From Chryseobacterium takakiae (lineage in GTDB: Bacteria > Bacteroidota > Bacteroidia > Flavobacteriales > Weeksellaceae): a stretch of 64,000 nt of DNA. Below the pieces are notes generated by a model. That model ran no database searches and was not told the origin of the DNA. It worked only from the letters and a program-made list of their open reading frames with translations. Of the stretch, positions 1 to 5,318 are shown in pieces; the first letter of the stretch is position 1, and every line of letters begins with the position of its first letter. A program made the position numbers and the translations under genes. Location: assembly GCF_900129385.1 (NCBI RefSeq), contig NZ_FQVO01000012.1, positions 1 to 64,000 on the forward strand, in the 5' to 3' direction.

Positions 1-601
1 ATTTATCATTTTGAGTAAATCCTTTATCATCTAGATAAAACGGAAGAAATTTTGTCATATTAGGATACATGATTTTTTGTTTATAAAAATCCTCCAATTT
101 TTGCAAGGTTAAATTGTTATCAAGCTCTAGCCAATGATGTTGACCTGGAAAATCTTCATTGCTGTTTAATTTTCCCGAAGAAGTGTAGCGACATTGCCCG
201 CGGTTTTTTAATTGCTTTTCATAGGTCAGAAGGTGTTTGTAAATAGCCGGATAGTTTTGCTCAAGAATCTTATAACTTCCATAATAAGCTAAAATTACAT
301 ACGTATCTGCAAAATCATATCCGTATTTTTTGATATCTCTGCCACGTAAAATAGGTCGAATAATTTCAACAGAATTTGGATCTTCATTTATTAATTTTTC
401 TCTTGTATAAGAATCAATTATAAAAGCTTCATTAAACCCAGTAATAATACCTCTACTTATATTGATATCCCAATCTTTTAAAGGAGTTCCTATCTTCTCA
501 ATTTTCGCTTTGATTTGTTGTTCTAAAGAAGAAAGTATTACCCAACTTTCAGAATTTGCAAATGTGGTTTGTACTGCATTTTGTCTAAAATAATCGCTCA
601 T
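1..601 (-). pseudogene. C-terminal half of a type IIG restriction-methylase (target-recognition part), N-terminus missing
   Basis: Reading the minus strand from an ATG at 601 gives an open frame that runs off the left edge. It holds the stretches SESWVILSSLEQQIKAKI, GTPLKDWDINI, RGIITGFNEAFII and EIIRPILRGRDIKKY. From memory these are typical of the TaqI-like C-terminal specificity domain of Eco57I-family type IIG enzymes, which join a methyltransferase, a nuclease and this target-recognition part in one chain. The N-terminal catalytic half should lie at higher coordinates, but the frame meets a stop at 666-668 and a recombinase gene follows on the other strand. The 21 codons between that stop and the ATG (ending in KPILHKINLSNKYCKEM) still look like protein. 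So the gene is either truncated or a silent recognition cassette used for recombination. A stand-alone specificity subunit is less likely. Confidence 0.6.
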
Positions 602-644
602 TTCCTTGCAATATTTATTGGATAGGTTTATTTTATGCAGAATA

Positions 645-659
645 GGTTTAAAATAAACC
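645..659. repeat. 15-bp palindrome, possible recombination site or operator
   Basis: GGTTTA-AAA-TAAACC reads the same on both strands apart from its centre. A further GGTTTATTTT at 625-634 pairs perfectly with 650-659. The palindrome lies between the broken type IIG reading frame and the serine recombinase gene (692). Small serine recombinases act at short dyad sites, so this could be a crossover site or an autoregulatory operator. The role is inferred. Confidence 0.35.
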
Positions 660-691
660 AAAACTGACTAATAATTTTAAACAGAAAAATA

Positions 692-1300
692 ATGATTTAC
701 GGGTACATAAGAGTAAGTACAGACAAGCAGACGGTAGAAAACCAAAGATTTGAAATTAATCATTTTTGTGAAATACAGGGTACTGTTGTCAACAAATGGA
801 TTGAAGAAACAATTTCCGGAGCAAAAAACGTTGATGACAGAAAGTTGGGTAAACTATTAAAAAAAATGAAGAAAGGAGATATTCTTATTTGTTCAGAGCT
901 TTCCAGATTGGGAAGAAATTTATTGATGATTATGGGAATTTTAAATGAATGTATGAATCGTGATATTCAGGTGTGGACAATAAAAGATAATTATAGGCTT
1001 GGCAGTGACATCAGCTCTAAAGTATTAGCATTTGCATTCGGTCTTTCAGCTGAAATTGAAAGAAATCTTATTTCACAAAGAACTAAAGAGGCTTTGGCAA
1101 GGAAAAAAGCAGAAGGTGTCATTTTGGGACGACCTAAGGGAAGTCGTTCAGCAAAAACTAAACTAACCGGACAGGAAAGAAAAATTCAGGATTTGTTAGA
1201 TCGCAAAGTTTCTTATTCAGCAATAGGGAGAATTTTGGGTGTACATCGTTTGACAGTAAGCAGCTTCGTGAAAAATCAAAATCAGATGGTGAATAACTAA
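692..1300 (+). CDS. small serine recombinase (resolvase/invertase family)
   Basis: This 202-residue protein has the layout of a resolvase or DNA invertase, which cuts and rejoins two short DNA sites through a phosphoserine link. The N-terminal catalytic domain shows YIRVST with the nucleophile Ser9, and SELSRLGR (68-75) with active-site Arg72 and Arg75. A long E-helix follows (about 100-135), then GRPKGSR and a C-terminal helix-turn-helix (about 165-195, ending in HRLTVSSFVK). The length is normal for Hin/Pin/Tn3-type enzymes. It is divergent from the truncated type IIG gene on its left, with a palindrome between them, and lies upstream of mcrBC. An inversion role at the type IIG locus is possible. 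It could equally be a solitary remnant of a transposon or plasmid resolvase. Confidence 0.9.
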   Translation: MIYGYIRVSTDKQTVENQRFEINHFCEIQGTVVNKWIEETISGAKNVDDRKLGKLLKKMKKGDILICSELSRLGRNLLMIMGILNECMNRDIQVWTIKDNYRLGSDISSKVLAFAFGLSAEIERNLISQRTKEALARKKAEGVILGRPKGSRSAKTKLTGQERKIQDLLDRKVSYSAIGRILGVHRLTVSSFVKNQNQMVNN

Positions 1301-1533: not shown

Positions 1534-3870
1534 ATGGACATAAACTTACAAAACAAAATTTCAGAATATTTGAAAGCTGAAAGAAATCAGGCAATCATTA
1601 ATTCTGATGAATTTTATTTTCAAAAAGCCAAAGATGAACTGCAGAAATTTTTAGACTTAGAAGTAAGAGAAGAAGAGAAACAGATTCTTATCGCTAATAA
1701 AAAGAAATACGAAGAACTTAAAAAGTTATTTCAGGATTCCGAAGAATTTTCTGACTTTGGGAAAACAATATTCTCTCTAGTTTCTTATTGTGATTTAAAA
1801 GCTTACAAAAAAAATGAGCTCAATCAGTATGATGATAAAAGAGTGCTGGCTTCAGCATTCGTACGAATGAATAACTGGCTGGAGCAGCTGATTACCTATA
1901 AATTTGAAGGACAGCTTTCCGAAGGATCGGTAAAAAATGCAATCGAATATCTTCTTCACCCGGAAGATCATTTTACCATGCTGAGTGAAAATCACCGCAG
2001 CCTGATTTCTGAAAACCTTTTCAAAAAAAGCTATAATAAAAGTACATTTAAGCAGGACTTTATTGATTTTTTTTCCGGGTTATCTATACAAGTTAAAAAT
2101 CCTGTAAACTATACGCATTTACTGTCATGTTTAAGTTATGATATCAGTCCTGAATGGAAAGAAAGCATCATTGGGTTAATATCTCCAGACGGAACCGGAT
2201 GGCAGGAAGGAGCTATTAATGATCTAAACGGTGCTGATTATATAATTTTATGGAATCACAGGAAACCTAACGGTACAACCAAAACTTTTAAATTATTAAA
2301 AGATTGTATTGATGAAAACGGCTCTTTTAAAATTTTCTACACTTCAAAAAATAATGCAATTTATATAGCAGAAGTCATTGACTTTGCTACATCAGCGCAG
2401 GAATACAATAAAGTAGATTGGGAAAATAATTATGAAAATATTACATGGAAACTAAATTCATTTGATGAATATAGGGATGGAGATAAATCAGCAAGCTGGG
2501 TATATTTAGTAAATAAATTTTATAAAATTGAGCCAATCCCATCTTCTCATTTTAAATATTATTTCTCTTCAGGTTACCCAAGCGTTGGTAGCCAGACACC
2601 AATAATTTCAATGATATCAAATATTGAATTCAAAAAAAATCAAAACATGAAAAAGACCATCGAACTGCTGCAGTACAAAAAGCAAATCATTTTACAAGGC
2701 CCTCCCGGGACGGGAAAAACAAGAGAAGCAAAACAGATTGCACAAAATATCTTAGGGTTAAATGAAAAAGAACTTCAAGAAAGCAAACAGTTCAAAATCA
2801 TACAGTTTCATCCAAGTTATACCTATGAAGATTTTGTACGAGGAATTGTGGCAAGACCAAATCCTGAAGGAGAGGGAATAATCTATGAAGCTGAAAATAA
2901 AACGTTGGGTAAATTTGCAAAGAATGCTTTAGAAAATTATAAGAAATCACAAAGCATCACTTCAAATAATAGTCTTGAAACCGATTTTGATAGATTCATA
3001 AACTTTATTATTGAACAGTTGGATCTCTCCGGCAAATTTAATATATCTGAAAATGTGTATATATTTTCCGTTGAGGATAATCGATTTAAATACAAAGGAG
3101 ATAATTGGAGTGCACACGCAAACGGTCTCAATATGAATTTTAGTCAGCTTAAAAAAATTATTGAGCTTAATTTAAATTCACGTCAGGAAATTGTTAAAAA
3201 TGAATTATTAAACTCATTAACAAGACAGCATGCTACATATTATCAAAATTTTTTAGACTTATACAAAAAATTTATTTCAAATAATCCCTCTAAAATTGAT
3301 AAAGAAGATTTAAAAAATTTCGTTTTAGTAATAGACGAAATCAACCGCGCCAATCTATCTTCAGTCTTAGGCGAATTAATTTACGCATTAGAATACCGTG
3401 GAGAAAAAGTTGAATCGATGTATGAAGTCGATGGGTCTCAAAATCTTGTTCTTCCGCCAAACCTTTACATCATCGGAACCATGAACACCGCAGACCGGAG
3501 TGTAGGGCATATTGATTACGCCATCAGAAGAAGATTTGCTTTTGTAGATGTTATGCCGAAAGATTTAACATCAGAAATGGAAGGCGGAGAATTTTATACC
3601 GATCTGTTTTCTGCTGTAAAGGCACTTTTCACAAAAGATGAGTACAAGACTAAATCAGATTTTATTTCTCAGGAATTTGAACCCAAAGATGTAGCTTTAG
3701 GACACTCTTACTTTATCAATAAATCAGAAGAAGGAGCAGATATGAAAGTACGATGGAATTACGAAATTAAACCTATTCTTTTGGAATATGTAAGAGACGG
3801 AGTTTTAAAAACGGATGCTTTGAAAAAAATTAACGAGTTGGAAACTACATTCAGTTTAAAAATTGAGTAA
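1534..3870 (+). CDS. mcrB: McrB-like AAA+ GTPase of a type IV (modification-dependent) restriction system
   Basis: McrB recognises modified DNA and uses GTP-driven translocation to activate the McrC nuclease. The 778-residue protein has Walker A GPPGTGKT near residues 388-395, Walker B VIDEINRA near 600, and the family signature GTMNTADRS near 648-656 followed by DYAIRRRFAF. The first 380 residues are not the E. coli McrB recognition domain. Residues 1-200 are helical and charged. About 215-345 looks like a compact beta-rich module (ADYIILWNHRK, FKIFYTSKNNAIYIAEVIDF, SASWVYLVNKFYKI) that reminds me of PUA/EVE-type modified-base readers, though this is only a pattern impression. mcrC starts 3 bases after the stop, so the two genes form an operon. 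The genes are AT-rich and sit next to a recombinase, which fits horizontal gain. Confidence 0.9.
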   Translation: MDINLQNKISEYLKAERNQAIINSDEFYFQKAKDELQKFLDLEVREEEKQILIANKKKYEELKKLFQDSEEFSDFGKTIFSLVSYCDLKAYKKNELNQYDDKRVLASAFVRMNNWLEQLITYKFEGQLSEGSVKNAIEYLLHPEDHFTMLSENHRSLISENLFKKSYNKSTFKQDFIDFFSGLSIQVKNPVNYTHLLSCLSYDISPEWKESIIGLISPDGTGWQEGAINDLNGADYIILWNHRKPNGTTKTFKLLKDCIDENGSFKIFYTSKNNAIYIAEVIDFATSAQEYNKVDWENNYENITWKLNSFDEYRDGDKSASWVYLVNKFYKIEPIPSSHFKYYFSSGYPSVGSQTPIISMISNIEFKKNQNMKKTIELLQYKKQIILQGPPGTGKTREAKQIAQNILGLNEKELQESKQFKIIQFHPSYTYEDFVRGIVARPNPEGEGIIYEAENKTLGKFAKNALENYKKSQSITSNNSLETDFDRFINFIIEQLDLSGKFNISENVYIFSVEDNRFKYKGDNWSAHANGLNMNFSQLKKIIELNLNSRQEIVKNELLNSLTRQHATYYQNFLDLYKKFISNNPSKIDKEDLKNFVLVIDEINRANLSSVLGELIYALEYRGEKVESMYEVDGSQNLVLPPNLYIIGTMNTADRSVGHIDYAIRRRFAFVDVMPKDLTSEMEGGEFYTDLFSAVKALFTKDEYKTKSDFISQEFEPKDVALGHSYFINKSEEGADMKVRWNYEIKPILLEYVRDGVLKTDALKKINELETTFSLKIE

Positions 3871-3872
3871 TA

Positions 3873-5318
3873 ATGGGCATCATTCTGAAAGAACATATTC
3901 ATTATAGTTTACTGATTACAGAAAATTGGTATGATGTAGTACATGAAGAAAGGAAAAACTATTTTCAAAAATCTTCTTTATCACAAATAAAGCCGCGTTT
4001 TTTTAAAGAAGAAAGAGGAAAAGATTATCCTTGTTTCAGACATACAGTTACCGAAAACGAGGTTAAGATTATTTCCGATTATTTTGTAGGGATTGATTGG
4101 TTCACTACTGATAAAAGCCGGTATATTCAGGTAGAGCCAAAGCTTAACGATAAGGTTGTAGAATCTTTTGAAGAAGCTACAAAAAAGAGTGACACTTTTT
4201 CTGATAGAGAGATTGAAGAATTTAATGGAAAAGTAGAAGAAGAAATTAAAAATTCTTCAGGAAAGAAAGAAGTTGATGTCATTGGAATGCTCATGCAGAT
4301 CATGTCTCATGCCGAAGTATCAAAACATACAGGAAAATTACTCTTTGTAGATTGGGAAGATCAGGAGATTTTAATTAATCAAAAGCAGGATTTACTGGCT
4401 CCTTTTTTGGTGGTTCGATTTCTTAATCTGTTAAAACACATCGTTAGAAAAGGTCTAAAAAAATCATATTATAAAAAACAGGATAACCTTAGGAATAGGG
4501 TTAAAGGTAAAATTTTAGTCGGACAACAGATCAGACAGAACGTTTTTAAAAACCGACTGACAAACACTGTCTGCGAATACCAGGTTTTCGGAGAAGATTC
4601 ACTGGAAAATCGTTTTTTGAATAAAGTATTTATATTCTGTACCAACTACATAGAGAATAATAAGATTTATTTTAAGGAAGAAAATGAAATTTTTTGGTTG
4701 ATCAATTATATTCGGCCGTCGTTTGAACATATTGGAAGTGAGATCAATATTCAGGACATCAAAAATTATAAGCATAACCCTTTTTTCAAAGAATACAAAG
4801 AAGCTATTAACATTGGTCAACAAATTTTAAAAAGATTCTCTTATAATATTACCAAGACGACTGAAGAAGAAATCTTTACCCCTCCGTTTTGGATTGATAT
4901 GCCGAAGATGTTTGAACTGTACGTCTATGCTCAATTGTTAAAAGATAATCCTGAACTTCAGGCAAAAGACTTTAATTATCAGTTCTCTACCTATGGCAAT
5001 GCTTTGGATTTTTTGATTTGCAGTGACAAAAAGAAAATTGTAGTGGATGCAAAATATAAACTGCATTATAATTACAGCCAGGTTCATAATGATATAAGAC
5101 AGGTCGCAGGGTATGCGAGATTAAAAAAAGTGAAAAATCAATCCCCTCAATTAAATGAAGAAATAGAATGTCTAATTATTTATCCAAAACCAATTAATGG
5201 TATTCATAAGAATAATTTAAATCTAGGTGAATTACAATGGGATGAAATTAATGCCTATCACAAAGTTTATAAAATAGGGATAAATTTACCGGTGATAGAG
5301 CAGAATGAATTAAAATAG
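3873..5318 (+). CDS. mcrC: McrC-like nuclease subunit of the McrBC restriction system
   Basis: McrC binds the McrB ring and supplies the PD-(D/E)XK endonuclease. The 481-residue length is somewhat longer than E. coli McrC (about 350) but common for the 5-methylcytosine restriction component in Bacteroidota. The C-terminal nuclease core is visible: FELYVYAQLL (helix), then LDFLI with an acidic residue near 378, then VVDAKYK near 391-397, which gives the D...DxK active site. The DIRQVAGYAR helix follows, as in the family. The ATG lies 2 bases after the mcrB stop (taataATG), so translation is probably coupled. Both genes look intact. Confidence 0.9.
   Translation: MGIILKEHIHYSLLITENWYDVVHEERKNYFQKSSLSQIKPRFFKEERGKDYPCFRHTVTENEVKIISDYFVGIDWFTTDKSRYIQVEPKLNDKVVESFEEATKKSDTFSDREIEEFNGKVEEEIKNSSGKKEVDVIGMLMQIMSHAEVSKHTGKLLFVDWEDQEILINQKQDLLAPFLVVRFLNLLKHIVRKGLKKSYYKKQDNLRNRVKGKILVGQQIRQNVFKNRLTNTVCEYQVFGEDSLENRFLNKVFIFCTNYIENNKIYFKEENEIFWLINYIRPSFEHIGSEINIQDIKNYKHNPFFKEYKEAINIGQQILKRFSYNITKTTEEEIFTPPFWIDMPKMFELYVYAQLLKDNPELQAKDFNYQFSTYGNALDFLICSDKKKIVVDAKYKLHYNYSQVHNDIRQVAGYARLKKVKNQSPQLNEEIECLIIYPKPINGIHKNNLNLGELQWDEINAYHKVYKIGINLPVIEQNELK

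What the first reader, a model, noticed from the sequence alone, without database searches (positions are those of the whole stretch)
1..700. Headless type IIG recognition domain facing a serine recombinase across a palindrome
The minus-strand frame ending at 601 has the C-terminal target-recognition motifs of Eco57I-type enzymes but no methyltransferase/nuclease half. Its place is taken by a divergent serine recombinase. A 15-bp dyad (645-659), with a partial direct copy at 625-634, lies exactly at the break. Recombinase-driven switching of recognition cassettes is known for type I hsdS loci in Bacteroidota. This could be a silent or expressed half of a similar type IIG switch.
Basis: partly seen in the sequence, partly recalled or inferred. 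Interest (0 to 1): 0.62.

Follow-up and report, generated by a model that had tools for sequence, protein, structure and literature searches.

The report
Shuffling type IIG restriction-specificity switch
A restriction enzyme gene here seems to keep a spare, back-to-front copy of its DNA-reading end next to a DNA-flipping enzyme, so that cells can probably swap pieces and change which DNA sequence is recognised; closely similar kits were found in other, distantly related microbes.

Summary
The window begins at a contig end. Frame 2-601(-) is a type IIG recognition cassette without nuclease or methylase. Its partner is contig C28: an Eco57I-type enzyme of at least 1153 aa, also cut at the contig end. 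Both cassettes start at the same codon with a perfect 29-bp match (window 572-600). The dyad at 645-659 is no better than chance and does not recur in C28. The recombinase (692-1300) is an Mpi-family DNA invertase.

In relatives the unit is complete: full gene, tail-to-tail headless cassette, invertase beside it. Of 63 loci with enough sequence, 47 have cassette and invertase, 15 neither, 1 (decayed) the invertase only. Comparing species, cassette modules change places at exactly three points (site 1, mid, site 2; located to 15-26 nt), and the three share one DNA motif although mid lies in another reading frame. Fourteen of 79 full-length cassettes are cut by a contig end within 1 kb downstream, none upstream. 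Headless cassettes show dN/dS about 0.1-0.5. Best reading: a three-site, three-module inversion switch of specificity. Programmed inversion of type II systems is recalled as reported (Milman 2023, not held). Actual switching, methylation and rates are inferred.

The parts
2..601 (-). Headless recognition cassette (TRD part of a type IIG enzyme), 200 codons, cut by the contig end at window base 1
572..600 (-). Site 1: 29-bp perfect repeat shared with the full-length gene on contig C28 (TGAGCGATTATTTTAGACAAAATGCAGTA); first crossover site
   Evidence: breakpoints between species at cassette nt 0-26
359..571 (-). Module 1 (between site 1 and mid), diverged from C28 up to about base 369
332..358 (-). 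Mid site: CGACCTATTTTACGTGGCAGAGATATC (codes RPILRGRDI); second crossover site by analogy
   Evidence: window sequence; breakpoint interval cassette nt 233-249 in relatives; exact repeat in 32 of 41 own pairs against 6.6 expected
69..368 (-). 300-bp block identical in both cassettes of this genome, running from just outside the mid site through site 2 (module 2)
72..95 (-). Site 2: GGAGGATTTTTATAAACAAAAAAT; third crossover site by analogy; identity to C28 ends just past it
   Evidence: breakpoint interval cassette nt 530-553 in relatives
1..68 (-). Start of module 3, diverged from C28, cut by the contig end
   Evidence: remainder not found in the assembly
602..691 (.).
   Evidence: role not tested
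692..1300 (+). Mpi-family serine DNA invertase, 202 aa
1313..1367 (+). Strong hairpin (23-nt arms, 96%) just after the invertase; possible terminator

Best explanation
[quoted passage not shown] The full gene (on C28) has nuclease, methylase and an expressed recognition cassette; a second, headless cassette lies tail to tail with it (here C33), and a dedicated Mpi-family invertase is encoded next to the headless cassette. The invertase recombines matching sites that are in inverted orientation in the two cassettes. Each cassette has three such sites (site 1, mid, site 2), so inversion can exchange the whole cassette, modules 2+3, or module 3 alone, and the enzyme changes recognition sequence while staying in frame. 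SHOWN: anatomy, shared sites, co-occurrence with the invertase, module exchange between full and headless position in relatives with breakpoints at the three sites, open and selectively constrained headless frames. INFERRED: that C28 and C33 are neighbours in this genome, that this Mpi catalyses the exchange, that exchange happens in this strain, that it changes the methylated/cut sequence, and that the benefit is phage defence or regulation.
For: Partner gene in the same genome, DUF7149/DUF7814/Eco57I/MmeI_Mtase domains, PADLOC type IIG 864 bits, perfect site 1 match. Of 63 loci with a full gene and at least 2.5 kb held past the cassette start (from 91 non-duplicate sources): 47 inverted partner + invertase, 15 neither, 1 invertase only (G016, decayed); Fisher p 1.3e-13; 47 of 47 tail to tail; invertase 15-168 bp from the headless cassette. 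Site 1 is locus-specific: 33 of 41 own full/headless pairs share an exact run of 15 or more there, against 1.0 of 41 expected from 1598 cross-locus pairs; mid 32 against 6.6; site 2 21 against 9.9. Breakpoints: C. taeanense (G160) against G107: module 1 same place (39 of 44 informative columns), modules 2-3 swapped (138 of 146), change between columns 233 and 249; G160 against G050: module 1 swapped (63 of 64), module 2 same place (36 of 37), module 3 swapped (56 of 59), changes at 0-26, 233-249, 530-553 (profiles). Lactococcus plasmids pJM1F and pUCCL629A, same invertase accession: modules 1-2 of one full gene are 99.2% identical over 496 bp to the headless cassette of the other, inverted, flanks collinear at 91-92%. 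The three site consensus sequences align best at mutually consistent offsets (0, +2, +2) of 25 tried; +2 puts mid in another reading frame, so shared protein motifs cannot explain it. Contig ends: 14 of 79 full-gene cassettes have one within 1000 bp downstream of the cassette start, 0 of 79 upstream; 12 of the 14 lie at nt 487-740, at or past site 2. dN/dS of headless cassettes 0.108 (G095/G140; full cassettes 0.095), 0.148, 0.213, 0.482.
Against: No reads and no two strains of one species were compared; the swaps are between species or plasmids and could be old. C28 and C33 are not joined in the assembly, and the ends of both module 3 copies are missing from it. Only 6 of 13 fetched genus relatives have an intact pair; G045 and G150 lack module 1 in the headless copy, G055 has a frameshifted full cassette, G016, G027 and G155 are decayed or rearranged, G112 has no invertase. 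Site 2 repeats are only about twice the cross-locus expectation. Contig ends can also come from plain repeats, and 2 of the 14 (L096, L052) are not near site 2. In this genome module 2 is identical in both copies, which inversion alone does not produce.
Confidence: 0.9

Rival explanations
1. Decayed duplicate: the headless frame is a truncated pseudogene left by a duplication or transposition, and the invertase is an unrelated neighbour.
For: Some loci are visibly decayed (G016, G155, G027). The frame is cut at the contig end here.
Against: Same layout with the invertase in 47 of 63 loci; 41 of 41 headless cassettes that start at module 1 have one open frame of 267-321 aa, though the scan favours open frames; dN/dS below 1 in the four headless pairs tested; locus-specific repeats.
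Confidence: 0.03
2. Exchange by general homologous recombination or gene conversion between the cassettes, with the invertase only a passenger or acting elsewhere.
For: Identical 300-bp block in this genome and long identical stretches between site 1 and mid in some loci; exact runs also occur between the sites (19 of 41 against 6.2 expected). Part of the observed mosaicism needs some replacement from outside (G050 module 3 resembles G095).
Against: Perfect co-occurrence with one invertase family beside the cassette; three breakpoint intervals of 15-26 nt that coincide with one shared motif, while flanking modules are only 40-70% identical, a poor substrate for RecA (the RecA remark is general knowledge).
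Confidence: 0.06
3. The headless cassette is translated as a separate specificity protein that works in trans with the enzyme, beside or instead of being a spare part.
For: The codon at site 1 is ATG in 21 of 48 headless copies against 5 of 45 full copies (TTG 35); headless frames are intact.
Against: 27 of 48 have another codon there; in both Lactococcus plasmids it is TGG right after a TAA. An in-frame spare part explains the open frame equally well.
Confidence: 0.07
4. Assembly artefact: C28 and C33 are allelic or chimeric pieces.
For: Both contigs end at the same distance from site 1.
Against: The same layout is continuous in single-contig relatives (G045, G050, G055, G140, G150 and others) and in two finished plasmids.
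Confidence: 0.02

Closest known systems
Invertible type I hsdS loci (for example SpnIII/cod of Streptococcus pneumoniae; survey of duplicated hsdS in PMC7394358: abstract start seen; PMC4948785: abstract start seen)
   Same: Expressed specificity part plus inverted silent part; inversion exchanges recognition modules; several repeats per gene allow separate exchange of modules
   Different: Here nuclease, methylase and recognition are one polypeptide; the recombinase is a serine invertase of the Mpi family (the pneumococcal PsrA is a tyrosine recombinase per the title of PMC7096588, seen in a listing); three sites per cassette share one motif
Gene-altering programmed inversions, Milman, Yelin and Kishony 2023 (doi 10.1093/nar/gkac1166; not held; seen only as a reference in PMC11892184 and PMC10939037)
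   Same: From recall: a genome-wide prediction that names type II restriction-modification systems among newly found inversion targets; this locus is probably of that group
   Different: Could not be read, so it is unknown whether the Mpi link, the three sites or the module exchange are described there
Mpi, master DNA invertase of Bacteroides fragilis (capsule promoter inversion; recalled)
   Same: Invertase belongs to the Mpi family by NCBIfam
   Different: Mpi is recalled as a global invertase of many promoters; here relatives sit 15-168 bp from one coding-sequence switch
Shufflons and Hin/Gin/Cin systems
   Same: Serine or tyrosine recombinase swaps C-terminal coding segments
   Different: Target is a restriction enzyme, with sites inside the reading frame at three module borders; no enhancer was sought
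Type IIG enzymes Eco57I/MmeI/BpuSI and the TRD-bearing methylases CamA, M.BseCI, BrxX/PglX
   Same: Domain content and Foldseek matches of the predicted MTase-TRD part: CamA 1.8e-23, BseCI 7e-17, BrxX 1.6e-15, MmeI 6.8e-14, BpuSI 8.9e-11
   Different: TM-scores are only about 0.2-0.45 with rmsd about 25, so the domain arrangement was not matched as one body

Membership tests
Mpi-family serine invertase | Match above the curated cut-off of the family model | tested here: met
   NF009949 342.6 bits, cut-off 272; Resolvase N-terminal domain; PDB relatives are Gin/Hin-type invertase entries 4m6f, 3uj3 and gamma-delta resolvase
Mpi-family serine invertase | Catalyses inversion between inverted sites | not testable with these tools
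   No biochemistry; only comparative traces
Type IIG (Eco57I-like) restriction-modification enzyme | One chain with methylase motifs and N-terminal nuclease region | tested here: met
   C28 frame: DUF7149, DUF7814, Eco57I, MmeI_Mtase; PADLOC REase_MTase_IIG over residues 1-1095; the nuclease signature itself was read by eye and not tested
Type IIG (Eco57I-like) restriction-modification enzyme | Cuts at fixed distance and methylates its site | not testable with these tools
   No activity data
Programmed inversion of a specificity gene | Expressed gene and silent part in inverted orientation with matching sites at the border | tested here: met
   47 of 47 pairs tail to tail; site 1 shared in 33 of 41 pairs. 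For the window genome itself orientation is inferred, because two contigs are involved
Programmed inversion of a specificity gene | Both states observed | tested here: inconclusive
   Swapped modules between species and between two plasmids, not within one strain
Programmed inversion of a specificity gene | Dedicated recombinase | tested here: met
   Invertase in 48 of 48 loci with an intact or decayed inverted partner and in 0 of 15 plain loci

The most novel reading that the evidence does not exclude
A widespread family of self-contained type IIG shufflons in which one Mpi-type invertase recognises the same short motif written three times into each recognition cassette, in two different reading frames, so that three protein modules recombine independently (up to eight enzymes from two cassettes, more where extra half cassettes are stored). 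The motif at sites 1 and 2 doubles as a short helix that opens each module, so the recombination code and the protein joint have evolved together.
Probability: 0.6. Interest if true: 0.75.

Novelty: new variant of a known kind. Interest (0 to 1): 0.68.

Why it matters
If it works as inferred, a single restriction enzyme can produce several specificities inside one clone, which would make populations harder for phages to overcome and could change methylation-dependent gene expression. It gives testable sites, a candidate recombinase and natural module swaps that could help to read out which module sets which bases. It also warns that methylome and assembly data of such strains will look mixed: contigs tend to end inside the cassette (14 of 79). 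The unit also sits on two Lactococcus plasmids beside a helicase and an N-6 methylase, so the cassette-invertase part may be portable between restriction systems.

Tried and rejected
The column-by-column count shows module 1 in place and modules 2-3 swapped.

Missing ends of module 3 of C28 and C33: sought with a profile of ten relatives (A2); only weak matches elsewhere and the known C33 start came back. Protein-level search for the pair in one extra collection: IMG/VR gave 56 invertase relatives, of which loci L139, L148, L162 and L177 carry type IIG cassettes. DNA motif scan for further sites upstream of the enzyme gene: suggestive palindromes only. Structure: modelled for C. taeanense, not for the window protein; pLDDT 83, pTM 0.67.

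Limits of the counts: the 80 genome loci are the best 80 of 130 relatives found with the headless cassette as bait, so shares are not prevalences; four duplicates of genus genomes were dropped before counting; many are metagenome bins, whose taxonomy may be wrong. 'Recombinase' means a phmmer match at 1e-10 anywhere in the held stretch. The site counts used patterns that partly presuppose the sites; its single plain locus with the mid motif makes the codon comparison useless. Literature: ten searches found no paper on invertase-driven type IIG specificity switching; the key paper (Milman 2023) is not held, so absence from print is not claimed.

Full report
WHAT IS THERE. The window is bases 1-64000 of contig C33 of a 4.2-Mb, 44-contig genome. 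The genus is probably Chryseobacterium: four genomes of the same genus have contigs of the same length as named Chryseobacterium records. At its left end lies a minus-strand frame (2-601) that matches only the C-terminal recognition part of type IIG enzymes. At 692-1300 follows a divergent serine recombinase of the Mpi family. After it come a hairpin (1313-1367) and an AAA/McrBC-like pair (1534-3870, 3873-5318).

THE PARTNER. A search of the whole genome with the stretch 560-720 returned one further place, C28:572-600. C28 is 5,724 bp and holds a frame of at least 1153 aa with DUF7149, DUF7814, Eco57I and MmeI_Mtase domains, running off the contig end. Aligned without gaps, window and C28 are identical at 572-600 (29 bp) and 69-368 (300 bp), diverged between these and at 1-68. 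The 29-mer occurs twice in the genome at up to three mismatches. No other strong relative of the enzyme or of its cassette is in the assembly, and the missing 3' ends were not found.

Present, but one such dyad is expected in a gap of this composition and length, and it has no counterpart in C28. It lies in the leader of the recombinase, a region in which several relatives carry a stretch like TTTATTTTAGACAG. Its role is untested.

RELATIVES IN THE GENUS. Fourteen of 173 genomes of the genus, own included, encode a relative of the cassette (E up to 1e-10), and 12 of the 14 have two or more matches. I fetched the loci of the 13 others. The invertase is next to the cassette in 12 of 13, at 89.8-93.6% identity; G112 has none. 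Six have an intact full gene and an intact headless cassette (G050, G095, G107, G140, G160, G166). G045 and G150 have headless copies that begin at the mid site, G055 has a frameshifted full cassette, and G016, G027 and G155 are decayed or rearranged. In the 22 copies found by the site 1 core, the flank is set by position (full...aattTGAGCG; headless: mostly ...aTGAGCG), while the letters after AGACA go with the cassette.

WIDER DISTRIBUTION. With the headless cassette as bait, the best 80 of 130 relatives in named genomes were kept. Together with genus loci and the two own contigs, minus four duplicates, 91 sources were scanned with a cassette profile and the invertase. Of 63 with a full gene and at least 2.5 kb held beyond the cassette start, 47 have an inverted partner and the invertase, 15 have neither, and 1 (G016) has the invertase with a decayed partner; Fisher p 1.3e-13. 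All 47 pairs are tail to tail, and the invertase is 15-168 bp away, either divergent from the headless cassette or in line with it. The record titles cover Bacteroidota and also bins named Campylobacteraceae, Treponema, Anaerolineales, Lachnospiraceae, Opitutales and a methanogen; binning errors are possible. Two finished Lactococcus plasmids have the same cassette-invertase arrangement behind a helicase and an N-6 methylase.

THREE SITES. Exact repeats of 15 or more bases between the full and headless cassette of one locus were compared with 1598 cross-locus pairs: site 1, 33 of 41 own pairs against 1.0 expected; mid, 32 against 6.6; site 2, 21 against 9.9; between site 1 and mid, 19 against 6.2. 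G160 against G107: columns 0-233 stay (39 of 44), columns 249-916 are swapped (138 of 146). G160 against G050: swapped from 26 to 233 (63 of 64), stay from 249 to 530 (36 of 37), swapped from 553 on (56 of 59). In the Lactococcus plasmids columns 24-580 are swapped (146 of 147), after which the four cassettes are all unlike. The changes fall in site 1, mid and site 2 and nowhere else. The consensus sequences of the three align best at offsets 0 (1-2), +2 (1-mid) and +2 (2-mid) out of 25 each, mutually consistent; mid is thus in another reading frame, so similarity of protein motifs cannot be the cause. For sites 1 and 2 alone, which share a frame, a protein cause remains possible. Partial cassettes in several loci begin near these points: profile 75-83 (mid) in G045, G150, L042, L066, L079 and L111, and 157-161 (site 2) in L060, L061, L073, L085, L100 and L111; others do not fit (L047 at 31, L089 at 194). 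In the window the same three sites are at 572-600, 332-358 and 72-95 (minus strand).

SIGNS OF ACTIVITY. Of 79 full-gene cassettes, 14 have a contig end within 1000 bp downstream of the cassette start and 0 have one within 1000 bp upstream; 12 of the 14 ends are 487-740 nt from the start, at or past site 2. As intact pairs mostly share only 15-32 exact bases at site 2, a mixed population is a natural cause, but longer repeats in the unseen partner cannot be excluded. Headless cassettes are conserved: dN/dS 0.108 for G095/G140 (full cassettes 0.095), 0.148, 0.213 and 0.482 for three pairs among G027, G055 and G160, the last on very few changes. All 41 headless cassettes that start at module 1 are open, though the scan favours open frames.

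STRUCTURE. A model of the methylase-recognition part of the C. taeanense enzyme (774 aa, 50 sequences, pLDDT 83, pTM 0.67) puts site 1 at a short helix (480-487) right after the methylase core and site 2 at another (637-640), each followed by a strand. Foldseek finds CamA, M.BseCI, BrxX/PglX, MmeI, BpuSI and M.TaqI, with low TM-scores.

MECHANISM. Best supported: the invertase pairs like sites in the two inverted cassettes and flips the DNA between them. Flipping at site 1 trades whole cassettes, at mid modules 2-3, at site 2 module 3; repeated flips give up to eight combinations of three two-state modules. All joints are in frame, so the enzyme stays functional and only recognition should change. 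The step from module exchange to a new recognition sequence rests on general knowledge of such recognition domains. The identical module 2 in this genome is not explained by inversion alone.

NOVELTY. Inversion of hsdS is well known (passages and one section of PMC5903667; abstract starts of others). From recall, Milman et al. 2023 name type II systems among predicted programmed inversions; the paper is not held. I therefore file this as a new variant of a known kind: the dedicated Mpi invertase, the single-chain enzyme and the three-site modular design are the distinguishing features, with no claim that they are absent from print.

Noticed in passing
window 69-368 and L003 (C28) 69-368: Module 2 is 100% identical over 300 bp in the two cassettes of this genome, while other intact pairs are about 30-70% identical there. 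Recent gene conversion or duplication is possible.
   Followed up: partly
window 1534-5318: AAA ATPase plus McrC-like pair (Pfam AAA_5, McrBC) directly after the invertase, so the locus may lie in a defence cluster.
   Followed up: no
L120 (G045) about 3770-3806 and the same place in G095, G140, G166: Palindrome TTGTCTAAA...TTTAGACAA with the half-site of the recombination sites sits just before the start codon of the type IIG gene; partial in G150 and G155, absent in C28. Perhaps a regulatory binding site of the invertase.
   Followed up: partly
L187 and L188 (Lactococcus plasmids pJM1F, pUCCL629A): Cassette-invertase unit attached to a helicase plus N-6 DNA methylase instead of a single-chain type IIG enzyme; modules swapped between the plasmids.
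   Followed up: yes
L190 (Prevotella nigrescens replicon NZ_CP082843): Mpi invertase with two Eco57I-type partial genes and an opposed N-6 DNA methylase; inverted 47-bp repeat between them. Looks like a three-cassette version.
   Followed up: no
L139, L148, L162, L177 (IMG/VR contigs): Type IIG cassettes beside the invertase on contigs filed as viral; they may be prophages or host DNA.
   Followed up: no
headless site 1 in 48 system cassettes: The codon before AGC is ATG in 21 of 48 headless copies and 5 of 45 full copies, so some headless frames might be translated; not so in Lactococcus.
   Followed up: partly
PMC5608340 (passages seen): Prevotella intermedia 17F and Rikenella microfusus are said to have type IIG genes and several unassigned, related methylation motifs; a specificity switch could be one cause.
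   Followed up: no
G000:C23 about 76920-78881: A second, distant type IIG-like frame (1031 aa) in the same genome.
   Followed up: no
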